Positions 4,689 through 29,860 of a stretch of DNA of 64,000 nucleotides are shown in pieces. The notes below the pieces were generated by a model. That model had not been told where the DNA came from. It saw only the letters and a list, made by a program, of their open reading frames with translations, and did no database searches. Each line of letters starts with the position of its first letter. The stretch's first letter is position 1. The DNA is from a bacterium HR29. GTDB lineage: Bacteria; Chloroflexota; Dehalococcoidia; Tepidiformales; Tepidiformaceae. A program made the position numbers and the translations under genes. The stretch lies in NCBI GenBank assembly GCA_002898215.1, contig BEIF01000001.1, positions 601,501 through 665,500 on the forward strand, read 5' to 3'.

Positions 4689-6509
4689 ATGCGGTCCGAG
4701 GACAACTACTGGCTCCGAAAGCTCGGCGGCAGCCGACTCTCGCGCCGCCGCTTCGTCGGCGGTGCGACCATAGCGACGGCCGGGGCGGCGTCCCTGGCGC
4801 TCGTCGGCTGTGGCGACGATGAGGGGGCGCCGTCCCCCACGACGCCCGCTGGTGGGCAAACGCCTACTGGCTCGCCGACAGCGGCCGCGTCGCCGACCCA
4901 GGTCCAGAAGCAGAAAGGCGGCATCGCCCGCTTCTCCAGCGCGAACAACACCTGGGACACCTTCGACGCCGACCGAAGCCGGTTTACGCCGTTCGCGACA
5001 CTGCTCGGGTTCACCAACCTCGGCATCGTCCACTACCGGAGCTTCGAACGAGCGGAGATCGAGGGGGCCCTGGCCGAGAGCTGGGAGCAGCCTGACCCGA
5101 CCCAGATCACCTTCAAGCTCCGGCCGAACGTCTACTGGCATAACAAGCCGCCGGTGAACGGCCGACAGGTCACCGTGGAGGACCTGAAGTTCTTCATCGA
5201 GCGGAACAAGGCGGGGAAGCTGCAGGACGGGACGGAGGATCCGAACTTCTACCGCAAGACGGAGTTCTCGATCGTCGACAAGGTCGAGGTCGTCGACTCG
5301 CAGACCCTCCGGGTCACGTTCACGAAACCGAACCCGTTCTTCCTGGCCACGCTTGCCGGTTCCTACGCGAAAGTGCAGGCCCCGGAGGCGGTCCGGGAAT
5401 TCGAATCGCGGTACAACGTCTATAGCGCCGACCTCATCATCGGAACCGGCGCCTACATCCTCACCGAGTTCAACCCGGAAGGCAGCTTGAAGCTCGTCAA
5501 GAACGACAAGTTCTACGACGAGATCTACATCGACGGAGTTCAGTACTTCCCGCTCTTCACCGACATCGCCGCCCAGCAGGCCTCCTTCGAGCAGAAGCAG
5601 ATCGACGCCTTCTCGCCGCGGACGGTCGCGGTCCTCAACGAGCTCCTGCAGAAGTACAAGGACCAGATCTACGTCACCCGCTCGTTCTCGGCGAACCCGA
5701 TGGGCGGTACCTACTACGGTGGCGCCCTGCCGTGGAGCGACAAGCGGCTCATCGGTGCCATCTTCAAGGTCATCGACCGACGGCAGATGGTGGAGATCCT
5801 CTTCCAGGGGTCCGGAGCCATGTGCGCGAACATCCCGCCGTCGCAGTCGGCCTTCGGCATCACCGAGCGGGAGCTGGTGACCTTCGAAGGGTACCGGGAG
5901 GACCGCGCCAAGGAGATCGCCGAAGCGAAGCAGATGTGGGAAGCGGCGAACGGAGCCTCCCTCGGCGAGGTGGTCGTCGACATCCCCGACATTTGGGAGG
6001 GCGCCTATCCCGGCATCGGCGCGACCATCACCGGCTGGCTCCAGTCGGCGCTCGGCAACACGTTCCGCCCCGCGATCCAGCCCTACTCGACGATCACGAG
6101 CAAGATCGTCAAGCAGGAGTACGGGAACGGGAAGGCGAACATCTGGTTCGGATGGCTCTCCGATGTGCAGAAGCTGGAGCCTACGCCTGACCTCTTCCTC
6201 CTCTACAATTCGACGCAGCCGCAGTTCCAACAGTGGGCGGTTAAGATCGACGAAGTCGATCGACTCACGGCGCAGGCAGTGGTGGAGCTGGACGTGGAGA
6301 AGCGGAAAGAGCTCTGCAAGGAGATCGAGCGACACCTCCTGCGGAACTGGGGAGCGGGAATTCCGTACAACGTCATCCAAGTGCTCAACACGCTCCGCTG
6401 GAACTACTACAAGATCGTCGAACAGCCTTCGTTCGTGAGCTCGCACAACTTCTACCGCGACAGCTGGTTCGACCAGTCCGACCCGACCTGGGCGGGGCGC
6501 CGCGCCTAG
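4689..6509 (+). CDS. Oligopeptide-type ABC substrate-binding lipoprotein (SBP family 5), Tat-exported
   Basis: A 606-residue family-5 extracellular solute-binding protein. The N-terminus has a twin-arginine motif (SRRRF, residues 18-22), a hydrophobic stretch and a lipobox ending LALVGC, with Cys41 as the lipid anchor. A Thr/Pro/Gly-rich linker follows, then the mature binding domain, including ALAESWEQPDPTQITFKLRPN, a typical family block. The protein should sit outside the membrane and deliver ligand to the two permeases downstream. Family members bind peptides, nickel chelates, sugars or other solutes; the ligand here is unknown. The ATG has a GGGGGAG ribosome site about 10 bases upstream. 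Confidence 0.93.
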   Translation: MRSEDNYWLRKLGGSRLSRRRFVGGATIATAGAASLALVGCGDDEGAPSPTTPAGGQTPTGSPTAAASPTQVQKQKGGIARFSSANNTWDTFDADRSRFTPFATLLGFTNLGIVHYRSFERAEIEGALAESWEQPDPTQITFKLRPNVYWHNKPPVNGRQVTVEDLKFFIERNKAGKLQDGTEDPNFYRKTEFSIVDKVEVVDSQTLRVTFTKPNPFFLATLAGSYAKVQAPEAVREFESRYNVYSADLIIGTGAYILTEFNPEGSLKLVKNDKFYDEIYIDGVQYFPLFTDIAAQQASFEQKQIDAFSPRTVAVLNELLQKYKDQIYVTRSFSANPMGGTYYGGALPWSDKRLIGAIFKVIDRRQMVEILFQGSGAMCANIPPSQSAFGITERELVTFEGYREDRAKEIAEAKQMWEAANGASLGEVVVDIPDIWEGAYPGIGATITGWLQSALGNTFRPAIQPYSTITSKIVKQEYGNGKANIWFGWLSDVQKLEPTPDLFLLYNSTQPQFQQWAVKIDEVDRLTAQAVVELDVEKRKELCKEIERHLLRNWGAGIPYNVIQVLNTLRWNYYKIVEQPSFVSSHNFYRDSWFDQSDPTWAGRRA

Positions 6510-6522
6510 GACCCTGCGACGG

Positions 6523-6549
6523 GGGGCGGCGGAGCATCTCCGCCGCCCC
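6523..6549 (+). other. Perfect 12-bp hairpin between binding-protein and permease genes
   Basis: Arms GGGGCGGCGGAG (6523-6534) and CTCCGCCGCCCC (6538-6549) pair perfectly around a 3-base loop. No T-run follows. The hairpin starts 13 bases after the binding-protein stop codon. Such intercistronic stems often slow 3' decay of the binding-protein message or cause partial termination, giving more binding protein than permease. That role is inferred. Confidence 0.75.
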
Positions 6550-6593
6550 GCGTCGAAACGCCGTGATCGTCAGCCGGAGGTCTGTGGGGGCAG

Positions 6594-7565
6594 ATGCGCA
6601 ACTACATCATTCGCCGGGTGCTCATCAACATCCCGGTCATCTGGCTCGTGGCAACGATGGTCTTCTTCGCCGCCAACGTCCTGCCGGGCGACTTCGTCGC
6701 TCAGCGGATCGCCATCCAGAACCCTGTGTCCAACGATCCCACCCAGTGGGAGGCACAGCTCGACGCCGTCCGCCGCGACCTCGGACTCGATAAGCCGGTG
6801 CTACAGCGGTACTTCATCTACCTGGGAGACCTGCTCCGCGGCGACCTCGGGGAGTCGTACGAGACGCGGCGGCCCGCCATGGACGGCTTCATCGACGGTC
6901 TCCCCTACACGCTCCAGCTCTCGGTGATGACCCTCATCGTCGCCGTGGTCACCAGCATCCCCATCGGTGTCGTTTCCGCCATCCGACAGGACACGTGGGT
7001 CGACTACATCTTGCGCGTGGTGGCCATCACGGCCCTCGCCGCGCCGAACTTCTGGGTCGCGACGATGATGCTCATCTACGTGGTCCGGCTCGATCTCTGG
7101 ACGGTCCCCCTCACCTCATCGCCGCTGTTGTGGGAATCGCCGATGGAGAGCTTGAAGCTCTTCATCATCCCCGCGATCGCCGGCGGGCTGGCCACCGGGG
7201 CGAGCGTCATGCGCCTCCTGCGGTCGACCATGCTCGAGGTGCTGCGCCAGGACTACATCCGCACCGCCTGGGCGAAGGGTCTTCGGGAACGGTACGTCGT
7301 GATGCGACATGCGTTGAAGAACGCCCTCATCCCGGTGGTGACGGTGTTGGGGCTCTCCGTGGCCACGCTCATCAGCGGGAACGTGGTCTTCGAATACATC
7401 TTCAACATCCCCGGAGTCGGGAACCGCGTGCTCCGCGCCATCAATGCCCGCGACGTGCCTGTCCTCCAGTCGTTCGTCCTGCTCCTCGCCACCTCGGTGG
7501 TGTTCGTCAACCTAGCCGTTGACCTGCTCTACGGGGTGCTCGACCCCCGCATCCGCTACGCCTAG
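6594..7565 (+). CDS. Oligopeptide-type ABC permease (DppB/OppB family)
   Basis: A 323-residue membrane protein with six predicted membrane segments. It has the usual family start (MRNYIIRRVLINIPVIWLVA) and the cytoplasmic coupling loop near residues 205-240 (LRQDYIRTAWAKGL), which contacts the ATPase. It follows the binding-protein gene after an 84-base gap that holds a strong hairpin. It forms the translocation pore with the next gene product. The substrate is unknown. No ATPase gene follows in this operon. Confidence 0.93.
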   Translation: MRNYIIRRVLINIPVIWLVATMVFFAANVLPGDFVAQRIAIQNPVSNDPTQWEAQLDAVRRDLGLDKPVLQRYFIYLGDLLRGDLGESYETRRPAMDGFIDGLPYTLQLSVMTLIVAVVTSIPIGVVSAIRQDTWVDYILRVVAITALAAPNFWVATMMLIYVVRLDLWTVPLTSSPLLWESPMESLKLFIIPAIAGGLATGASVMRLLRSTMLEVLRQDYIRTAWAKGLRERYVVMRHALKNALIPVVTVLGLSVATLISGNVVFEYIFNIPGVGNRVLRAINARDVPVLQSFVLLLATSVVFVNLAVDLLYGVLDPRIRYA

Positions 7566-7577
7566 GAGCGCTCGCCC

Positions 7578-8612
7578 ATGGCCCAGCAGCCGATCGCCGT
7601 CGAACGCGTCCCCACCGATTTCGTTCGCAGCCTAAGCGACCGTCCATGGTACGTCCGTGCCGCCGTCCACGTCGGACGCTTCTTCCGGGCGAAGCCCCTC
7701 GGCGGTGTCGGAGTCGCTCTCATCGTCCTCTTGGTGGTGGTGGCCGTCTTCCGCGAGCAGCTCTCGCGGTACGACCCGCAACAGGTGTTCCAGGTGCCGA
7801 ATCCCTCCTACGATGCCGAGCTGGCGGAGCAGGCGCTCGACAACCCCTCGCTGAAACTCCTCCACCCGCCCGAGAAGTTCGAGCCGACCACGCTCGCACG
7901 GAACCTGGGGCCGTCGTCGAAGCACTGGCTAGGTACCGACAACAACGGCCGCGACTTGTTCGCCCGGTTGGTGTGGGGTTCCCGCGTTTCCCTCCTGGTG
8001 GGGATCGGTGCATCGGCGCTGGCGGTGTTCATCGGCTCGGTGTTCGGGATCGTGAGCGCCTACTTCGGTGGCTGGGTCGACATGTTCATGCAGCGCCTTA
8101 CCGACTCCCTCCAGGCGTTCCCGCCGCTCATCCTCCTCCTCCTCATGATTCAGGTCATCGACACGCCGAACCTCACCCTCATCACGGTCGCCCTGGGGAT
8201 CGTAGGCGTGGCCCCGGTCATCCGGATCGTGCGCAGCACGGTGCTCGCCGTCAGGGAGGAGGTCTACGTGACGGCGGCAATTACCATCGGCGCTTCCGAC
8301 CTGCGGATCATGTTCCGGCACATCCTGCCCAATATCGTCGCGCCCATCATCGTCGTGTTCACGACGAGCATCGGCCTGTACATCCTCGCCGAGGCGAGCC
8401 TCTCCTTCCTCGGCTACGGCGACCCACGCGAGATTTCGTGGGGGAAGATGGTCAACGAAGGCCGCATCCTCACCTCGGCGGCGCCGAACGTGGCGCTCGT
8501 CAGCGGCTTGGCGATCACCCTCATCGTGCTCGCCTTCAACCTGGCCGGGGACGCCCTGCGCGATGTCCTCGACCCGCGGCTGCGGGGGCGGAGCGGCCGG
8601 TCTGGGTTCTAA
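7578..8612 (+). CDS. Oligopeptide-type ABC permease (DppC/OppC family)
   Basis: A 344-residue second permease of the importer, with an OppC-type N-terminal membrane segment, a periplasmic stretch of about 60 residues and a five-segment permease core. The block KHWLGTDNNGRDLFARLVWGSRVSL and the EAA-type loop ITIGASDLRIMFRHILPN are diagnostic. It starts 12 bases after the previous stop. The operon ends here: the next gene is convergent, with only one base between the two stop codons. ATPase subunits (DppD/DppF type) are missing and must be supplied from elsewhere. Confidence 0.93.
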   Translation: MAQQPIAVERVPTDFVRSLSDRPWYVRAAVHVGRFFRAKPLGGVGVALIVLLVVVAVFREQLSRYDPQQVFQVPNPSYDAELAEQALDNPSLKLLHPPEKFEPTTLARNLGPSSKHWLGTDNNGRDLFARLVWGSRVSLLVGIGASALAVFIGSVFGIVSAYFGGWVDMFMQRLTDSLQAFPPLILLLLMIQVIDTPNLTLITVALGIVGVAPVIRIVRSTVLAVREEVYVTAAITIGASDLRIMFRHILPNIVAPIIVVFTTSIGLYILAEASLSFLGYGDPREISWGKMVNEGRILTSAAPNVALVSGLAITLIVLAFNLAGDALRDVLDPRLRGRSGRSGF

Positions 8613-22481: not shown

Positions 22482-23246
22482 ATGGCTAGGCGTATGACTA
22501 CTGTTAGGCAGCGGCTACCATCGGTGGTGGGGCTTCCTGTGCAAACCCGACGCAATCCCGTCGAAAGTCGCGCGCGAATTCTCCGGGCGGCGGAAGAGTG
22601 CTTTGCAGAATCAGGCTATGAGGGCGCTCGGATGCAAGCCATTGCAAATCGAGCGCGAATCAACAAGAGGATGCTTTATCATTACTTTGGGAGCAAGCAG
22701 GGGCTCTATGCCGCAGTCCTCGATCGCAATTTCGAGCAAATACTCCGTCCGGCTTGCGATGCCGGCCGTGAAGCGCTTGCCGCCGGTGGCCCCAGAGCCG
22801 CGATCCGCGCGATTGTGAGGACGTACTATGATGCCCTCCGCGACCATCCCCGGTACGTCCGGCTCTTGTTGTGGGAGGCCGCTCGCCAATGGTCTCACGC
22901 GAACGCGGCGCCGCACCATCAGCTGGCGGAACTTCGCGACATCATCCAAAGCGTATTGCATCTCGGGATCGCGAGGAGGGAATTCGATCCTGACATACCC
23001 GCTTCTATCTCCTGGTCGTTGGTTATCGGCGTGCCTGCGATGTTCTTCTTCTACCGCCCGCGGCTCGAGCACCTTCTCGACGACGAGACCGTCCGAAGTG
23101 AGCTTCTGGACATTGCGCGGCGAGAACTGGTTCGATTCGTCGAAGGCGGTTTGCTCCCTAGGGGCGAGGCGCAATCGCCGCCCCCTGGCGTGGAGGCGGC
23201 GATCGAAGGGAGCGGGCGAGACGGAACTGGCTCTCCGACTTCCTGA
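22482..23246 (+). CDS. TetR-family transcriptional regulator, likely master of the adjacent module
   Basis: A 254-residue TetR/AcrR repressor. The N-terminal helix-turn-helix domain spans about 28-75 (SRARILRAAEECFAESGYEG ... INKRMLYHYFGSKQGLYAAVL). A ligand-binding domain follows, with a hydrophobic segment near 185-195. The chosen ATG is six bases from a -10 box; a second ATG lies four codons later. The gene is convergent with the binding-protein gene (three bases between stops). Three matching palindromes at the promoters of the neighbouring genes make it the natural candidate for their repressor; this is inferred. Confidence 0.88.
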   Translation: MARRMTTVRQRLPSVVGLPVQTRRNPVESRARILRAAEECFAESGYEGARMQAIANRARINKRMLYHYFGSKQGLYAAVLDRNFEQILRPACDAGREALAAGGPRAAIRAIVRTYYDALRDHPRYVRLLLWEAARQWSHANAAPHHQLAELRDIIQSVLHLGIARREFDPDIPASISWSLVIGVPAMFFFYRPRLEHLLDDETVRSELLDIARRELVRFVEGGLLPRGEAQSPPPGVEAAIEGSGRDGTGSPTS

Positions 23247-23249
23247 CCC

Positions 23250-24971
23250 CTAACTCGTCTTGTAGGCGTCGATGAGGTACTCCTGCGCGTAGGTGAAGAT
23301 CCACCAAAGGTGCACGTTTGCCTGGTGAACGTGGTAGAACTGGCCGACCGTCGTCGGTACGTTATACATACGGTCAGCCATGATGTTGACGACGTCGCGG
23401 ATCGCCGCCTTGCGCTGCTCTGGGTCGAGAATACGACGCTGTTTTTCGATGGCGTTCCGCAGTTCCGTGTCTGCCTCCAGCAGTGGCTTGAGGCCCGGCG
23501 CGATCAGCCGCGGGCTATCCGGCTCCCAGAAGCTGGTGAAGTACTCGTTCGGGTCCGCACCGACAAGGTTGGCCGAAGCGGCCATGCCCCCTTCCCACTT
23601 GCCTGCGACCACCGTCTTCGCGTAGTACTCGGCGAAGGGGAGCTGCTGGAGCCGAGTTTCGATGCCGATGGCCTTGAGCTGCTGCTGAATCAGTTCGGTC
23701 TGTTGCAACTGGGTCGGCGACCAGACAGCGGAGCCAATGAGCGTGTATTCCGGGAGCGACGTGCTTCCTAGTGCGGCACTCAGCAGCGCTTTCGCCTCCT
23801 GGAGATTGTGCTGGTAGTACTTCGCGTTGGGGAAGGCGTTTTGTTTGGGGTCGAAGTACCATTGGCTGAGCACGCCGTAAGGAAGCGCCCACGCGCCCTC
23901 GACGGACACGCGGACGAGGTCGTCGCGGTTCAATGCGAGGGAGATAGCTTGGCGGACGCGCTTGTCCCGGAACACGGGATCGTTGAGGTCGAAACCGAGC
24001 CAGGAGTTCCCCTGGGCCAGGTACGGGAGGAACGTGGCTCCGGGAAGGTCCCTCTTGAGGGACTCGACGTCGTTCGGTCCGACGACTGCGGTCCAGGCAA
24101 GGGAGTCAAGCTGCTTGCTGCGTAAGGCGGATACGGTCGTGGATGGGTCGGCGATGATTTTATAGACGACGGCGTCGAGGAACGGCCGGTCTTTGATGAA
24201 GTAGTCGGGGTTGCGCTTGTAGCGCACCTCCGCGCCGACCTGATAGCCATCGAAGATGAACGGCCCGGCACTCCACATATCCTTCTCGAGCCGGCCAGTT
24301 CCGAAGAGCTCCTTCGGCATGATGTAGAAGTAGCCTTGGTGCGCGATGTGGTTCAGGAACGGACCGAGAGGCTTGGAAAGCTCGAACCTCACCGTATCGG
24401 CGGAGATGGCCTCGACGCGGAGCACGTCTGCGAAGAGAAGACGACTGGGATGCTCCGCTTTGAGCCTCTGCCAGGCCGCGACGACGTCTTCGGCGGTGAG
24501 CGCACGGCCGTTCAACGGCTCCTTGTTCTCCCACTTCGCCGGGCGCAGTTTGAACACATACGTAAGCTCGTCCGGCTGCTCCGGAAGGCTCGTGGCGAGG
24601 TCGGTCGTGATTCCATAATCCAGAGGGCCGACATCGGGGCCAGTCGCGAACTTCAGCAGGCGGGGATACACCATGCTGTTGTGCATCATGGAGCGGTAGC
24701 TCCATGTCTTGATGTAGTCGAAGCTCGCTGGGTCCCCATTGTCGTGGAGCGTCAACGTTCCGCCGCGCACCGGCGCGGCTGTGGGCGAAGGAGTGGTCCC
24801 CGCGGCGGGCTGTGTACCTGCCGGTGGCGTCGGAGATGGCGCCTCCTCGTCGTCCCCGCAGCCAACGACCGAGGCTGCGGCTAGCCCGACACCTCCCAAG
24901 AACGAGCCCTGCAAGAGGCGGCGCCTTCCAATTCGTGAGCCGAATACGCTGACGGGGTTCCGGTCTCGCAC
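23250..24971 (-). CDS. Oligopeptide-type ABC substrate-binding lipoprotein (SBP family 5), Tat-exported
   Basis: A 573-residue family-5 binding protein with a twin-arginine motif (GRRRLLQG, about 15-22) and a lipobox ending SVVGC (Cys38). An Ala/Pro/Thr linker precedes the mature domain. Family blocks include DLATSLPEQPDELTYVFKLRP and DKRVRQAISLALNRDDLV. The GTG start has GGGAGG six bases upstream. The gene diverges from the SDR-permease operon; both promoters carry the same operator, so this is the binding protein of that importer. The ligand is unknown. Confidence 0.92.
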   Translation of the reverse strand: MRDRNPVSVFGSRIGRRRLLQGSFLGGVGLAAASVVGCGDDEEAPSPTPPAGTQPAAGTTPSPTAAPVRGGTLTLHDNGDPASFDYIKTWSYRSMMHNSMVYPRLLKFATGPDVGPLDYGITTDLATSLPEQPDELTYVFKLRPAKWENKEPLNGRALTAEDVVAAWQRLKAEHPSRLLFADVLRVEAISADTVRFELSKPLGPFLNHIAHQGYFYIMPKELFGTGRLEKDMWSAGPFIFDGYQVGAEVRYKRNPDYFIKDRPFLDAVVYKIIADPSTTVSALRSKQLDSLAWTAVVGPNDVESLKRDLPGATFLPYLAQGNSWLGFDLNDPVFRDKRVRQAISLALNRDDLVRVSVEGAWALPYGVLSQWYFDPKQNAFPNAKYYQHNLQEAKALLSAALGSTSLPEYTLIGSAVWSPTQLQQTELIQQQLKAIGIETRLQQLPFAEYYAKTVVAGKWEGGMAASANLVGADPNEYFTSFWEPDSPRLIAPGLKPLLEADTELRNAIEKQRRILDPEQRKAAIRDVVNIMADRMYNVPTTVGQFYHVHQANVHLWWIFTYAQEYLIDAYKTS

Positions 24972-25022
24972 TGCTGCCCTCCCAGGTTCGTCTTCCCTAG
25001 CGCTCTGCCCGCGCCGGCGGCG

Positions 25023-25051
25023 AGTGTAACCGCTCGGTTACTGCGCGTCAA
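25023..25051 (-). promoter_or_regulatory. Operator-bearing promoter of the binding-protein gene
   Basis: On the minus strand, -35 TTGACG (25046-25051), a 17-base spacer and -10 TACACT (25023-25028). The palindrome TAACCG-CT-CGGTTA (25027-25040) fills the spacer and overlaps the -10 box, the classic layout for repression by a TetR protein. Confidence 0.85.
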
Positions 25052-25109
25052 TCCTATGGAGTCGATAGGCGCCCGACTTATCGCTCGGTAGGCGGCAAGC
25101 GGCCACGCC

Positions 25110-25139
25110 TTGACAGGCTGGTAACCGCCCGGTTATATA
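25110..25139 (+). promoter_or_regulatory. Operator-bearing promoter of the SDR-permease-cyclase operon
   Basis: The -35 box TTGACA (25110-25115), an 18-base spacer and -10 TATATA (25134-25139). The palindrome TAACCG-CC-CGGTTA (25122-25135) lies in the spacer and touches the -10 box. It is the second of three matching operators and faces away from the first across 81 bases. Confidence 0.85.
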
Positions 25140-25173
25140 GCCCCCGCAGTTCGAGGGCGACAGGAGCAGCGCC

Positions 25174-25938
25174 GTGAGGCTTTCCGGCAAAGTCGCGGTC
25201 GTCACTGGAGGCGGAACCGGCATCGGCGCTGCCATCGCCAAGCGCTTCGCGCGAGAGGGCGCAGTCGTCGTCATCTCGGGGCGCCGGCCGCAGCCACTCG
25301 CCGATGTGGCCGAATCGATCGCTCGCGAGGGAGGAGAGGTAGAGGCGGTCGCATGCGATTCGGCCACGGAAGAAGGCGTCGAGCGGTTGTTCCGAAAAGC
25401 GCTGGAGTTCGGCCGCCTCGATGTCCTCGTGAACAACGCCGCCATTGCAGGCCCGGTCGCTCCCATCTGGGATCAGGAGCTGGCCGGATGGGAAGAAACG
25501 CTCCGCATCAATCTCACCGGGCCGTTCCTCTGCTCTCGTGCCGCCGCCCGCGCGATGATCCCCCGCCGAAGCGGCCGCATCATCAACATCGGGTCGATAA
25601 GCGGGAAGCGCCCGCTCGCGACGCGGAGCCCATACACCACGACGAAGATGGGCCTCGTGGGCTTGACCCGAACGCTCGCCTTGGAGCTCGGAGAGTACGG
25701 GATCACGGTCAACGTCATCAGCCCCGGAGCGGTCGACACTCCCCGCCTCAACGAACTCGCCGAGCGGTGGCACACCACGGTCGAGGCATTGCGCTCTTCG
25801 ATGGCCGCTCAGGCCGCCCTCCGCCGTATCAACGAGCCCGACGATATTGCCGCACTTGCTGCCTTCCTCGCGAGCGACGAGGCGCGAAACATAACGGGCA
25901 TCGATATAACCGTCGACGCCGGCGTCTGGTTCTCCTAG
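25174..25938 (+). CDS. Short-chain dehydrogenase/reductase (SDR)
   Basis: A 254-residue classical SDR. It shows the cofactor motif TGGGTGIG (residues 11-18), NNAA at 87-90, and the catalytic set Ser141, Tyr154 and Lys158 (YTTTK). Asp at the second strand end is absent and Arg37-Arg38 follow GR, which hints at NADP(H). The GTG start has AGGAG seven bases upstream. It is the first gene of the operator-controlled operon and probably oxidises or reduces the imported compound. Confidence 0.92.
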   Translation: MRLSGKVAVVTGGGTGIGAAIAKRFAREGAVVVISGRRPQPLADVAESIAREGGEVEAVACDSATEEGVERLFRKALEFGRLDVLVNNAAIAGPVAPIWDQELAGWEETLRINLTGPFLCSRAAARAMIPRRSGRIINIGSISGKRPLATRSPYTTTKMGLVGLTRTLALELGEYGITVNVISPGAVDTPRLNELAERWHTTVEALRSSMAAQAALRRINEPDDIAALAAFLASDEARNITGIDITVDAGVWFS

Positions 25939-25953
25939 GAGGAGCCGAGGGTA

Positions 25954-26910
25954 ATGACGGCCTACGTGGTGAACCGCCTCATTCTCCTGATTGTGAGTCT
26001 CCTGGGAGTCACGGTGCTCGTCGCCCTTATCGTTCGTCTCCTCCCCGCGAGCGCGATCGAAGTGTTGGCAGCGCAACAAGGCTTCTCCGAGGCGGCCGAC
26101 CTTGATCGTCTCGAGCACGAACTCGGACTCGACCGCCCGTTTCTGGTCCAGTACGGAACCTGGCTGGCCGGGGTCCTGCGGGGCGATTTCGGCGACTCCC
26201 TTCGGACGCGGCGCCCGATCTCTGACGAGCTGAAAGCGCGGCTCCCGGTAAGCTTGCAGCTTGCCGGGATGGCCTTCGTGGTGGCCGTGGCCGTCGCGAT
26301 CCCCGTCGGCGTTCTGTCAGCTGTCCGTCAGAATACGCTCCTCGACTACACCGCGCGGAGCCTGGCGATAACCGGTGTTGCACTCCCGGGGTTCTGGGTT
26401 GCGACCCTGGTCGTTGTCTGGCCGTCGGTATGGTGGGGGTGGAGTCCTCCGTTGACGTACACCTCTTTCATGGACGACCCCCTTACGAACGTCTCCCAAA
26501 TGTGGATCCCGGCCGTGCTGCTTGGCCTCTACTTCGTGGGATTCCTGATGCGCATGACCCGGGCGATGATGCTCGAGGTCCTTCGCTCTGATTACGTTCG
26601 TACGGCTTGGGCGAAGGGCCTGGCGCCTAGGGTCGTCATCCTGCGACATGCGCTTCGGAATGCGCTCATCCCGATCGTAACCGTAATTGGGTTGCAGCTA
26701 CCGGTGCTGGTCGGTGGGGCGGTAGTGTACGAGATGGTCTTCACGGTTCCAGGGATCGGTCGGCTCCTGTTGGAGGCAGTCCAGAACCGAGACTATCCCG
26801 TGACCCAGGCGGTGAACTTCGTGCTAGCGGGCATCGTGCTCACGGCGAATCTTGCCGTGGACCTGAGCTACACGGCCCTCGACCCACGCGTGCGGCTCGG
26901 AGGGGAGTAG
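25954..26910 (+). CDS. Oligopeptide-type ABC permease (DppB/OppB family)
   Basis: A 318-residue permease with six predicted membrane segments and the coupling loop LRSDYVRTAWAKGLAPRVVILRHALRNALIPI. It follows the SDR gene by 15 bases and ends two bases before the next permease. It belongs with the divergent binding-protein gene. No ATPase gene is present in the module. Confidence 0.92.
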   Translation: MTAYVVNRLILLIVSLLGVTVLVALIVRLLPASAIEVLAAQQGFSEAADLDRLEHELGLDRPFLVQYGTWLAGVLRGDFGDSLRTRRPISDELKARLPVSLQLAGMAFVVAVAVAIPVGVLSAVRQNTLLDYTARSLAITGVALPGFWVATLVVVWPSVWWGWSPPLTYTSFMDDPLTNVSQMWIPAVLLGLYFVGFLMRMTRAMMLEVLRSDYVRTAWAKGLAPRVVILRHALRNALIPIVTVIGLQLPVLVGGAVVYEMVFTVPGIGRLLLEAVQNRDYPVTQAVNFVLAGIVLTANLAVDLSYTALDPRVRLGGE

Positions 26911-26912
26911 CG

Positions 26913-27821
26913 ATGAGCGATTTCGCGGTTTCGTCCGGGATGACCTGGAGCGAGGCGTCACGTCGGGCGAAGCCGCTGGTGACGCGGGCTCTGGAGCTGG
27001 TTGCGCGCTACCCCCTCGGTGCCTTCGGACTCTTCGTTCTTGGTGCGTTCGCGCTGGCGGGGGTTTTGGCTCCCTGGGTAGCGCCCTACCCGTACGACCA
27101 GACGAACATCCTTCGTCAGCTCGAGTCTCCGGGATGGCCTCATCTGTTGGGCACCGACAACCTGGGGAGGGACGTGCTCAGTCGGCTGATCTGGGGGGCG
27201 CGCGTCGAACTCCTGGTCGGCCTCGGGGCCATCGCGATCGCGGCTACGGTCGCAGTCGTGGTTGGGGTGCCGAGCGGCTTCTACGGCGGCAAGGTGGATC
27301 TGTTTGTGCAGCGCGCTGTGGATGTGCTTCAGGCGTTCCCGGGCCTTGTCTTGCTCATCACGATAATCTCGATGTTCCAGCCGGGCCTGTATCAGGTCAT
27401 GGTGGCAATCGGAATCGTCCTCTCGCCCGCCGCGATACGCGTCGTTCGGGCCGCTTCGCTCGAGATCTCCCAACGGCCGTATGTGGAATCGGCGCGGGCC
27501 GTGGGGGCGAGCGACTTCCGCATCCTCGTTTCCTATGTCCTTTTGAACACGTTCGCCCCGCTGATGGTCACGGTGACGACCCTTCTCGGCGTGGCGATCC
27601 TCCTCGAGGCGAGCCTGAGCTTCCTCGGCTACGGCGTTCCGCCGCCGCAACCTTCGTGGGGCGCGATGCTCGGGCCCGATGCTCGACGGGATATGCTCCG
27701 GGCGCCGTTGCTGTCGGTATGGCCTGGCCTGGCAATCTTCCTCACGGTGTTCAGCTTCAACATGCTCGGCGACGCACTTCGGGATGCCCTCGACCCTCGG
27801 CTGAGGAATGTTCGTGCGTAG
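26913..27821 (+). CDS. Oligopeptide-type ABC permease (DppC/OppC family)
   Basis: A 302-residue second pore subunit. It shows HLLGTDNLGRDVLSRLIWGARVEL near residue 80 and the coupling loop SARAVGASDFRILVSYVLLN, followed by LEASLSFLGYGVPPPQPSWGAML, which marks this family. It begins two bases after the previous stop with a GGAGGGGAG site. Nucleotide-binding subunits must come from another locus. Confidence 0.92.
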   Translation: MSDFAVSSGMTWSEASRRAKPLVTRALELVARYPLGAFGLFVLGAFALAGVLAPWVAPYPYDQTNILRQLESPGWPHLLGTDNLGRDVLSRLIWGARVELLVGLGAIAIAATVAVVVGVPSGFYGGKVDLFVQRAVDVLQAFPGLVLLITIISMFQPGLYQVMVAIGIVLSPAAIRVVRAASLEISQRPYVESARAVGASDFRILVSYVLLNTFAPLMVTVTTLLGVAILLEASLSFLGYGVPPPQPSWGAMLGPDARRDMLRAPLLSVWPGLAIFLTVFSFNMLGDALRDALDPRLRNVRA

Positions 27822-27866
27822 CCGGCGCCAGCCGGAGAAGGACTCTCGGTATAGGAGAACGCGGCC

Positions 27867-28814
27867 ATGGATATCCTCGACGAGTACTGCCAGCGATACC
27901 GCAATTGGGGGAAGTGGGGTCCGGACGACGAGCTGGGGACGGTAAATTACATCACGCCCGACAAGATCGTTCGGGCAGCCTCACTCGTGAGGCAGGGGAA
28001 GGTCATCTCGCTCGCCCTTCCCTTCGACGCGAACGGCCCGCAGACAGGGAGGCTTGCCCGCGTCAATCCGATCCACCAGATGCTCGCTACCGGAACCGAC
28101 CACGTTGCCGGCCGGCAACTGTACGGTGGCAGACCGTTCCCGCGCGGTTTCGGATATGCGGACGACACGATCACGATGCCGTTGCAGTGCGGAACACAGT
28201 GGGATGGCCTGTCTCACATCTTCCACAACGGGAAGATGTGGAACGGCTACGACGCGGCGCTTGTCACCAGCCAGGGAGCCGCGAAGAACGGCATCGAGAA
28301 GCTGCGGGATAAGGTTGTCACCCGTGGGGTGCTCCTGGATGTCGCCCGGGCGAAGGGGGTCGCCTCTTTGGAACCGGGTTACCCCATCACGGTCCAGGAT
28401 TTGGAGGAGGCCGCACGTTTCGCCGGCGTGACGATCGAGGAAGGGGACGCCGTGCTCGTCCGCACGGGCTTCATGGAGTACTGCCTGGAGAACGGTTGGG
28501 GGGACTACGCGGGCGGAAACGCCCCTGGCCTCTCCTTCGAGACGGCAGGATGGCTCTACGAGGCGAAGATCGCTGCCATTGCGTCCGATACGTGGGGAGT
28601 CGAGGTGAGGCCCAACGAGCTGCCCGACTCCTTCCAGCCCCTCCACCTCGTCATGGTGGTCAACATGGGGTTGCTCGTCGGCGAGATCTTCGCTCTTGGC
28701 GAGCTCGGGAGGGACTGCGCCGAGGACGGGGTCTACGAGTTTCTGTTCGTAGCCCCGCCGCTGCCGATCACAGGAGCTGTGGGGTCACCGCTGAACCCGC
28801 TGGCGATAAAGTAG
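27867..28814 (+). CDS. Cyclase-family (KynB/isatin hydrolase-like) metal-dependent hydrolase
   Basis: A 315-residue member of the 'cyclase' family that includes kynurenine formamidase and isatin hydrolase, which open amide or lactam-type bonds. The usual metal motif HxGTHxDxPxH is altered to Q107-C-G-T-Q111-W-D113-G-L-S-H117, so two metal-binding His are Gln. This variant exists in a subfamily of such proteins and need not mean loss of activity. The ATG has AGGAG nine bases upstream. It ends the operator-controlled operon, 45 bases after the permease, and probably hydrolyses the imported or SDR-modified substrate. Confidence 0.85.
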   Translation: MDILDEYCQRYRNWGKWGPDDELGTVNYITPDKIVRAASLVRQGKVISLALPFDANGPQTGRLARVNPIHQMLATGTDHVAGRQLYGGRPFPRGFGYADDTITMPLQCGTQWDGLSHIFHNGKMWNGYDAALVTSQGAAKNGIEKLRDKVVTRGVLLDVARAKGVASLEPGYPITVQDLEEAARFAGVTIEEGDAVLVRTGFMEYCLENGWGDYAGGNAPGLSFETAGWLYEAKIAAIASDTWGVEVRPNELPDSFQPLHLVMVVNMGLLVGEIFALGELGRDCAEDGVYEFLFVAPPLPITGAVGSPLNPLAIK

Positions 28815-28891
28815 CAGCCGACCATCGTCGAGAACGTGGGCGGTGGATGCGCATCCCTGGCGGGAGAAGCGTCGTTTTCTTGGAGCCTGGG

Positions 28892-28912
28892 CTGGGGTGG
28901 TCCGGTCCCCAG
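28892..28912. terminator. Candidate bidirectional stem-loop between convergent genes
   Basis: CTGGGG (28892-28897) pairs with CCCCAG (28907-28912) around a nine-base loop, in the 107-base gap between the cyclase and metallo-beta-lactamase stop codons. There is no T-run, so termination is only a guess. Confidence 0.35.
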
Positions 28913-28921
28913 GGGCGGTGG

Positions 28922-29746
28922 CTACCGTCCGAGAGGCTGTATCCGGGAGTGCTGCTCCTCGATCCCCGGCATGACCCAGCGCTTGCCCCCGCCCTTGGCC
29001 CACCCTTCGGGCCCGCCGGTGATGTAGCTCGGACCCACACCGATGAACTCGAGGCCCGGCGTGTCAGCCGTCACGCCCGATATCCCGAAATGGAACTCGT
29101 CGCAGTACTGGACTCGCCCGTCATCGATCCGAAACGGCCGGTCGTGGCCCGGATAGATGATCGCGTCCATCTCGAGGCACCGCCGAATCGAGGCGTCGGC
29201 CTGCTCCACGTCCCAGAAGACGAGCGGCGATGCCCCCATGAGCGCCACGTTCGCGTTGTGGATCGCATCGCCGGTGAGCACACAGCGACCCTGGTCCGTC
29301 ATCACCTCGAGGCCGATGCTCCCCGGTGAATGGCCCGGGAGCTCGATGACGCGACACCCGGGCATGATTTCGTATCCCTCGCCGACCTCTTCGAGCTTGT
29401 ACAGCTCCAGGACCGCTCCCGTCCATTGGGGCGTGGCCCAGTCGTTCGGGTGCGGGTTTCGGGCGTACGCCCGCTCCAGCGGGTGGAGAAGCAACGGCGC
29501 GTGTCCGAAGACGTCCACGTTCTGGACGTGGTCCCAGTGTGCGTGGCTGAGCACCTGGACGTCGATGTCCTTCGGAGTCAGACCACGACGGCGCAGCTGT
29601 TCGAGCAGCAGCGTACGGCGGCCGACGTGCGCGGAGTCGAAGAGGACACGACGCGTGCCCTCGATGAGGATCACCGCGCAGAATCCGATGATCCCCTGGT
29701 CGGAGTTCACACTCGAACCAGGCATGAGGATGTCGATCTTGGGCAC
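28922..29746 (-). CDS. Metallo-beta-lactamase-fold hydrolase, N-acyl homoserine lactonase-like
   Basis: A 274-residue MBL-fold enzyme close to the AHL lactonase (AiiA-type) group. The metal ligands are complete: His68, His70, Asp72 and His73 (HAHWDH), His139 (GHSPGS), Asp160 (TGDAIHN) and His201 (YPGHD). The GTG start has AAGGAGGTG upstream. It has its own operator-bearing promoter of the same type as the two other promoters of the module. A lactone or similar ester is a likely substrate, but signal degradation against catabolism cannot be decided here. Confidence 0.87.
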   Translation of the reverse strand: MPKIDILMPGSSVNSDQGIIGFCAVILIEGTRRVLFDSAHVGRRTLLLEQLRRRGLTPKDIDVQVLSHAHWDHVQNVDVFGHAPLLLHPLERAYARNPHPNDWATPQWTGAVLELYKLEEVGEGYEIMPGCRVIELPGHSPGSIGLEVMTDQGRCVLTGDAIHNANVALMGASPLVFWDVEQADASIRRCLEMDAIIYPGHDRPFRIDDGRVQYCDEFHFGISGVTADTPGLEFIGVGPSYITGGPEGWAKGGGKRWVMPGIEEQHSRIQPLGR

Positions 29747-29831
29747 GCCCCACCTCCTTCGCGGTCTTCACGGACGGACCTGAGCACCGCACGCGGGCAG
29801 TGGAAGGGACCCGGCCGACGCGTTCTTCAGC

Positions 29832-29860
29832 GTGATAACCGAGCGGTTACTTCTTGTCAA
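29832..29860 (-). promoter_or_regulatory. Operator-bearing promoter of the metallo-beta-lactamase gene
   Basis: On the minus strand, -35 TTGACA (29855-29860), a 17-base spacer and -10 TATCAC (29832-29837). The palindrome TAACCG-AG-CGGTTA (29836-29849) covers the spacer and the edge of the -10 box. It is the third operator of the set; the leader to the GTG at 29746 is about 80 bases. Confidence 0.83.

What the first reader, a model, noticed from the sequence alone, without database searches (positions are those of the whole stretch)
22482..29860. Candidate undescribed import-oxidise-hydrolyse module for a cyclic or lactone-type compound
Under the shared operators lie a Tat lipoprotein binding protein, two permeases, an SDR, a cyclase-family hydrolase and an AHL-lactonase-like enzyme. 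I know of no named pathway with this set. Two ring- or ester-opening hydrolases plus a dehydrogenase suggest stepwise breakdown of an imported lactone, lactam or similar ring, induced when the compound releases the repressor. An anti-signalling role is an alternative.
Basis: inference. Interest (0 to 1): 0.72.

Follow-up and report, generated by a model that had tools for sequence, protein, structure and literature searches.

The report
Inducible uptake-and-lactone-hydrolysis gene module
A Chloroflexota bacterium carries seven neighbouring genes, most under one shared on/off switch, that probably import a small ring- or ester-containing compound and break it open with two hydrolases; the parts belong to known kinds, but the combination and its substrate are undescribed.

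Summary
Three promoters (binding protein; SDR–permease–permease–cyclase; MBL hydrolase) each carry the perfect palindrome TAACCGnnCGGTTA between −35 and −10. It occurs exactly three times in the 2.34-Mb genome, all here. The 'cyclase' carries the Q-x3-Q-x-D-x3-H site of the crystallised esterase MGS0169 (5IBZ), reported to be shared with trans-dienelactone hydrolase, not the His site of isatin hydrolase or kynurenine formamidase; ester or lactone cleavage is favoured over lactam cleavage. The MBL enzyme has an intact two-metal site but lacks AiiA's Tyr194. The missing ATPases are probably a stand-alone DppD–DppF pair 44 kb away, apparently shared by seven permease pairs. The complete set was seen nowhere else. 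However, SDR–MBL–cyclase are contiguous in a Burkholderiaceae MAG with a different TetR and a TTT importer, MBL–cyclase are adjacent in Bacterium HR24, and a TetR/cyclase/SDR set in Rhizobium (pRL80036–37) is induced in the pea rhizosphere. Best reading: a TetR-repressed catabolic regulon for an imported ester or lactone, or a precursor that the SDR converts into one. Quorum quenching is unlikely. Substrate unknown; moderately interesting, not a new kind of system.

The parts
22482..23246 (+). TetR-family regulator (TetR_N + TetR_C_29), presumed repressor of the three promoters
   Evidence: Pfam PF00440 E=1.1e-16, PF17938 E=1.4e-10; the adjacent TetR; convergent with the SBP gene. No operator copy upstream of it. 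That it binds the operators is inferred.
23250..24971 (-). Family-5 (Opp/Dpp/Nik) solute-binding lipoprotein with Tat signal
   Evidence: PF00496 E=5.3e-60; RR motif and lipobox VVGC; nearest solved relative by sequence is AgaA 6hlx, E=4.9e-24
25023..25051 (-). SBP promoter: TTGACG-17-TACACT with operator 25027-25040 between the hexamers
   Evidence: promoter scan; geometry
25027..25040 (.). Operator 1 TAACCGCTCGGTTA
   Evidence: one of only three genome-wide copies
25110..25139 (+). SDR-operon promoter: TTGACA-18-TATATA with operator 2 between
25122..25135 (.). Operator 2 TAACCGCCCGGTTA
25174..25938 (+). SDR oxidoreductase of a 'GKRPL' subgroup
   Evidence: PF13561 E=2.6e-61; GKRPL motif and YxxxK shared with L097, L155, L156, L157
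25954..26910 (+). DppB/NikB-type permease
   Evidence: PF00528 E=2.4e-36
26913..27821 (+). DppC/NikC-type permease
   Evidence: PF00528 E=4.1e-24
27867..28814 (+). PF04199 hydrolase of the Gln-motif (MGS0169 / trans-dienelactone hydrolase) subgroup: Q107, Q111, D113, H117, R65, H260, E273
   Evidence: PF04199 E=1.7e-25; 5IBZ E=8.1e-70; alignment A1; mutagenesis of the equivalent residues in PMC5341072
28922..29746 (-). MBL-fold hydrolase, two-metal site H68/H70/D72/H73/H139/D160/H201 intact; His163 at the AiiA Tyr194 position
   Evidence: PF00753 E=5.4e-16; alignment A2; AlphaFold2 pLDDT 89.7; Foldseek best matches are lactonases
29832..29860 (-). MBL promoter: TTGACA-17-TATCAC with operator 3 between
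   Evidence: below the generic promoter-scan threshold
29836..29849 (.). Operator 3 TAACCGAGCGGTTA

Best explanation
A TetR-repressed catabolic regulon. The neighbouring TetR protein (inferred) sits on three near-identical operators between -35 and -10 and blocks the binding-protein gene, the SDR-permease-permease-hydrolase operon and the MBL gene. When the imported compound or a metabolite releases it, the lipoprotein captures the compound outside; the DppB/C-type permeases, powered by the genome's stand-alone shared DppD/DppF ATPases (inferred), bring it in. The SDR changes a carbonyl or alcohol, direction unknown, and the two metal hydrolases cut ester or lactone bonds, feeding acids to central metabolism. 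Most likely substrate class: a small lactone or ester, or an alicyclic/aromatic-derived compound turned into one; lactams or cyclic diketones remain possible. Shown by sequence: genes, operator uniqueness, promoter geometry, active-site residues, recurrence of enzyme subsets. Inferred: TetR binding, ATPase sharing, reaction order, substrate.
For: Operator found only 3 times in 2.34 Mb, all here, in the same position of three promoters. SDR-MBL-cyclase contiguous behind a TetR gene and followed by TctC/B/A importer genes in a Burkholderiaceae MAG, L097; MBL-cyclase 6 nt apart in Bacterium HR24, L067; 3 of 48 MBL loci carry a cyclase at 51% identity or more, against about 0.01 expected (estimate). 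TetR/cyclase/SDR in Rhizobium and Ancylobacter; the Rhizobium pair is induced in pea rhizosphere next to an induced importer and CoxMSL (PMC3333776). The hydrolase keeps all seven active-site residues of MGS0169, a metal-stimulated esterase; that paper reports the same motif in trans-dienelactone hydrolase. The MBL model's best matches are lactonases. One stand-alone DppD/DppF pair for seven Dpp-type permease pairs.
Against: The full gene set was not seen elsewhere; regulators differ between lineages (TetR_C_29 here, TetR_C_30 in L097). Cyclase homologues sit in many contexts, mostly without SDR or MBL. tetR carries no operator of its own. Binding-protein ligand and SDR direction are unknown.
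Confidence: 0.6

Rival explanations
1. The module degrades an N-heterocycle or lactam: SDR makes a dioxo-lactam and the cyclase opens it like isatin hydrolase, as in heterocycle pathways that use molybdenum hydroxylases.
For: Close cyclase relatives (70-74%) sit beside CoxL-type molybdenum hydroxylase genes (L033, L034), as do the cyclase/SDR pairs of Ancylobacter and Rhizobium and the SDR's nearest relatives (L155, L156, L157; L156 also has a PF04199 gene directly after the SDR). MGS0169 has weak isatin activity (PMC5341072).
Against: The isatin hydrolase / KynB His-x3-His pair is Gln-Gln here; [quoted passage not shown] no molybdenum hydroxylase in the module (two elsewhere in the genome).
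Confidence: 0.15
2. C-C bond cleavage: SDR reduces or oxidises a ring to a cyclic 1,3-diketone and the cyclase hydrolyses it, like phloroglucinol reductase plus dihydrophloroglucinol cyclohydrolase.
For: An SDR next to a PF04199 enzyme is the core of that pathway (PMC10470551); a cyclase homologue overlaps iolM, a scyllo-inosose dehydrogenase, on a Streptomyces plasmid.
Against: The cyclohydrolase keeps the isatin-hydrolase metal site whereas this enzyme has the Gln variant; no other phloroglucinol-pathway gene is in the module; an MBL hydrolase is not part of that pathway.
Confidence: 0.1
3. Signal or antibiotic detoxification: the MBL enzyme is a quorum-quenching AHL lactonase and the locus is anti-signalling.
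For: Fold and metal site of AiiA-type lactonases.
Against: AiiA Tyr194 is His here and variable in relatives; 45.6 bits against a 375-bit cut-off; the enzyme is co-regulated with an importer and catabolic-type enzymes.
Confidence: 0.05
4. A loose collection of generic hydrolases and an orphan transporter that share one repressor but act on different compounds.
For: Enzyme homologues are scattered through many catabolic neighbourhoods; the full set is unique to this genome in the samples searched.
Against: SDR, MBL and cyclase recur contiguously in a distant phylum with a different importer.
Confidence: 0.1

Closest known systems
MGS0169 (PDB 5IBZ), PF04199 Gln-motif metal-dependent esterase; and trans-dienelactone hydrolase of Pseudomonas reinekei MT1
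   Same: Same fold family and all seven mutated or ligand-contacting residues of MGS0169 conserved in the window enzyme; the MGS0169 paper states that trans-DLH shares the Gln motif.
   Different: Substrate unknown; trans-DLH belongs to a chloroaromatic pathway (own knowledge), none of whose other enzymes is in the module; the trans-DLH sequence itself was not available for comparison.
Rhizobium leguminosarum pRL80035-80037 (TetR / cyclase / SDR) with CoxMSL and HAAT importer, induced in pea rhizosphere
   Same: Cyclase 55% identical, SDR next to it, divergent TetR with a palindromic site before the cyclase, importer nearby
   Different: SDR only 32% identical and another subgroup, no MBL enzyme, different importer, molybdenum hydroxylase present
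Phloroglucinol pathway (PGR + dihydrophloroglucinol cyclohydrolase)
   Same: SDR plus PF04199 enzyme as the ring-opening pair
   Different: Metal-site motif differs; other pathway genes absent from the module
AiiA-type AHL lactonases / 4-pyridoxolactonase
   Same: MBL fold, HxHxDH-H-D-H site
   Different: about 20% identity, no Tyr194, far below family cut-offs
Dpp/Opp ABC importers
   Same: Family-5 binding protein and two permeases
   Different: No ATPase gene in the locus; probably served by one shared DppD/DppF pair

Membership tests
Gln-motif PF04199 esterases (MGS0169 / trans-DLH) | Q-x3-Q-x-D-x3-H motif plus Arg87, His286, Glu299 | tested here: met
   Q107, Q111, D113, H117, R65, H260, E273
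Gln-motif PF04199 esterases (MGS0169 / trans-DLH) | metal-stimulated ester or lactone hydrolysis | not testable with these tools
   needs enzyme assay
Isatin hydrolase / kynurenine formamidase | H-x3-H-x-D-x3-H metal site | tested here: not met
   first two His are Gln; isatin hydrolase aligns only weakly, E=1.7e-8 with the profile, and over that motif only insignificantly
AiiA-type AHL lactonase | HxHxDH-H-D-H two-metal site | tested here: met
   all ligands invariant in 17 relatives
AiiA-type AHL lactonase | Tyr at D+3 (Tyr194) | tested here: not met
   D160-A-I-H163; variable in relatives
AiiA-type AHL lactonase | score above curated family cut-off | tested here: not met
   45.6 bits against 375
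AiiA-type AHL lactonase | genome makes AHLs (LuxI family) | tested here: inconclusive
   no PF00765 hit, but controls did not ring either
Dpp/Opp ABC importer | family-5 SBP and two BPD_transp_1 permeases | tested here: met
Dpp/Opp ABC importer | cognate ATPases encoded with it | tested here: not met
   none in the locus; lone DppD/DppF pair at G000:C1:673718-675731
TetR-repressed regulon | palindromic operator overlapping each promoter | tested here: met
TetR-repressed regulon | TetR binds the operator and is released by the substrate | not testable with these tools
   needs EMSA / reporter
Phloroglucinol degradation cluster | cyclohydrolase with the isatin-hydrolase metal site, plus 3-hydroxy-5-oxohexanoate dehydrogenase and triacetate lyase | tested here: not met
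   Gln-Gln in the metal motif; neither further enzyme is in the module; not searched genome-wide

The most novel reading that the evidence does not exclude
A so far unnamed lactone/ester degradation pathway in which an SDR, an MBL hydrolase and a Gln-motif PF04199 hydrolase act in sequence, found in at least two phyla with different importers (Dpp-type or TTT) and different TetR regulators, so that the enzyme trio travels as a functional unit.
Probability: 0.4. Interest if true: 0.55.

Novelty: new member of a known kind. Interest (0 to 1): 0.42.

Why it matters
If right, it points to an inducible pathway for an unidentified class of compounds in poorly studied Chloroflexota, gives two uncharacterised hydrolase subgroups a joint test system with a built-in sensor (TetR plus three operators), and shows that annotating Gln-motif PF04199 enzymes as kynurenine formamidases (as for pRL80036) is doubtful. 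It also points to one ATPase pair serving many peptide-type importers.

Tried and rejected
Rfam scan of 20-32 kb: nothing. Isatin/formamide reading tested on residues and downgraded. AHL lactonase membership tested and not met. LuxI search uninformative. Conservation of the whole module in about 300 Chloroflexota genomes: MBL and cyclase homologues never in the same place except in the window genome. Burkholderiales cyclase homologues: often near TctC proteins (common in that order) but not near SDR/MBL. Streptomyces MBL relatives lie by polyketide synthase genes and say little about this locus. Literature for the gene set: no paper describing it, in an open-access library only. Literature for diketo-inositol hydrolase: nothing relevant. 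The plasmid collection covers few relatives of the MBL enzyme.
Full report
What was checked. The window is part of a 2.34-Mb, four-contig genome (window = contig 1, 601501-665500) whose relatives in the searches are Dehalococcoidia-class Chloroflexota. The binding protein has a twin-arginine motif and a lipobox.

Operators. The palindrome TAACCGnnCGGTTA occurs at 25027, 25122 and 29836. In the whole genome the exact pattern occurs only at these three places, and the reversed control pattern never. In the window no further site appears with up to two mismatches. Each copy sits in the same place in a promoter: TTGACG-CGCAG-operator for the binding protein, TTGACA-GGCTGG-operator for the SDR operon, TTGACA-AGAAG-operator for MBL, with the last TA of the operator opening the -10 (TACACT, TATATA, TATCAC). 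This is the layout of repression by blocking RNA polymerase. The generic promoter scan picks up only the first of the three. The tetR gene has no such site; the link between this TetR and the operators rests on adjacency and on the type of site, and is inference.

Missing ATPases. The locus has SBP and permeases but no ATPase. The genome has ten family-5 binding proteins, seven Dpp-type permease pairs (my count from the BPD_transp_1 table), but only three oligo_HPY ATPases: a DppD/DppF pair at C1:673718-675731 with no permease or binding protein beside it, and one further ATPase on contig 2. None of the binding-protein loci inspected contains a DppD/F-like ATPase. The simplest reading is that this pair, about 44 kb from the module, energises this transporter and the others; not shown.

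The cyclase-family enzyme. Its only solved relative by single-sequence search is 5IBZ (E=8e-70). 5IBZ is MGS0169, found in a metagenomic esterase screen; it is a metal-stimulated (Mn best) esterase whose motif is Gln-x3-Gln-x-Asp-x3-His instead of His-x3-His-x-Asp-x3-His. Alanine mutants of Gln127, Gln131, Asp133, Arg87, His286 and Glu299 are impaired; [quoted passage not shown] the authors state that trans-dienelactone hydrolase shares the motif (PMC5341072). The window enzyme has Q107, Q111, D113, H117, R65, H260 and E273 at these positions. So it belongs to the ester/lactone-cleaving Gln subgroup, not to isatin hydrolase or kynurenine formamidase. Relatives of about 58% identity in genome G089 carry His-His at the same positions (HAATHWD), so the pair switches within the subfamily.

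The MBL enzyme. All metal ligands are invariant in 17 relatives. The predicted model (pLDDT 89.7) matches lactonases best: AiiA, 4-pyridoxolactonase, GcL, at about 20% identity and TM about 0.6. The Tyr194 position of AiiA is His163 and variable in relatives, and the AiiA family score is 45.6 against a cut-off of 375. It is lactonase-like, not an AHL lactonase by these tests.

The SDR. It belongs to a subgroup with the motif GKRPL before the catalytic Tyr, shared with L097, L155, L156 and L157. The end of its second strand is SGRR without an acidic residue, which suggests NADP(H) (inference), so reduction is as possible as oxidation.

Do the genes co-occur? In 301 Chloroflexota genomes, cyclase and MBL homologues were not neighbours outside the window genome. 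In the collection of 84,980 species, MBL relatives gave 48 loci (L061-L108); three carry a cyclase at 51-69% identity (L067, L097, L065), against about 0.01 expected from cyclase density and 0.83 Mb of sequence (estimate with assumed mean genome sizes). L067 (Bacterium HR24) has MBL and cyclase 6 nt apart. L097 (a Burkholderiaceae MAG) has TetR-SDR-MBL-cyclase followed by TctC, TctB and TctA importer genes: the same three enzymes, a TetR of a different C-terminal family, a different importer. In Rhizobium pRL8 and Ancylobacter, TetR is divergent from cyclase-SDR with a palindrome TTATC-(N4)-GATAA before the cyclase. In Rhizobium leguminosarum 3841 these are pRL80036/37 by gene order; they are induced 6-10 fold and 2.5-3.5 fold in pea rhizosphere, near the induced importer pRL80026-30 and CoxMSL, and mutants in pRL80021, pRL80023 and pRL80026 compete less well (PMC3333776). 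That paper calls pRL80036 N-formylkynurenine formamidase; its Gln motif (QASTQWDALCH) makes this doubtful.

A wider theme. The closest cyclase relatives (G193, 74%; G233, 70%) sit beside CoxL-type molybdenum hydroxylase genes, and the nearest SDR relatives in Chloroflexota sit in CoxSL/CoxMSL operons, in L156 with a PF04199 gene directly downstream. So both gene families belong to a pool of (hetero)aromatic or alicyclic degradation genes. The window module may be a short version that takes up a compound already in a lower oxidation-pathway state. Cyclase homologues also occur in contexts with none of these partners, so the association is real but not obligate.

Verdict. The system is of a known kind, an inducible catabolic regulon, with an unknown substrate and an enzyme combination for which I found no description in an open-access library. 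The step from sequence to substrate needs assays.

Noticed in passing
G000:C1:673718-675731 (L135:8218-10231): Stand-alone DppD-DppF ATPase pair without permeases or binding protein, in a genome with seven Dpp-type permease pairs and ten family-5 binding proteins lacking ATPases: a likely shared energiser.
   Followed up: partly
window 4689-8612: A second family-5 binding protein and permease pair in the window, also without ATPases.
   Followed up: no
L035, L037, L038, L039, L040 (genome G089): Six cyclase copies of about 55-59% identity in one genome, with HxxTHWD instead of QxxTQWD: the metal-site pair switches between His-His and Gln-Gln.
   Followed up: partly
L121:25963-26913 (pRL80036): Annotated in the literature as N-formylkynurenine formamidase, but has the Gln-motif of the esterase / trans-dienelactone hydrolase subgroup.
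   Followed up: partly
L113:6793-8945: Streptomyces plasmid: iolM (scyllo-inosose 3-dehydrogenase) overlaps a cyclase homologue (55%), hinting at an alicyclic polyol substrate in that case.
   Followed up: no
L079-L094: Relatives of the MBL enzyme lie next to polyketide synthase genes in many Streptomyces.
   Followed up: no
G000:C4:49488-50363 (L137): Paralogous cyclase (34-37%) near another SDR and an amidohydrolase, about 12 kb from another binding protein and permease pair.
   Followed up: no
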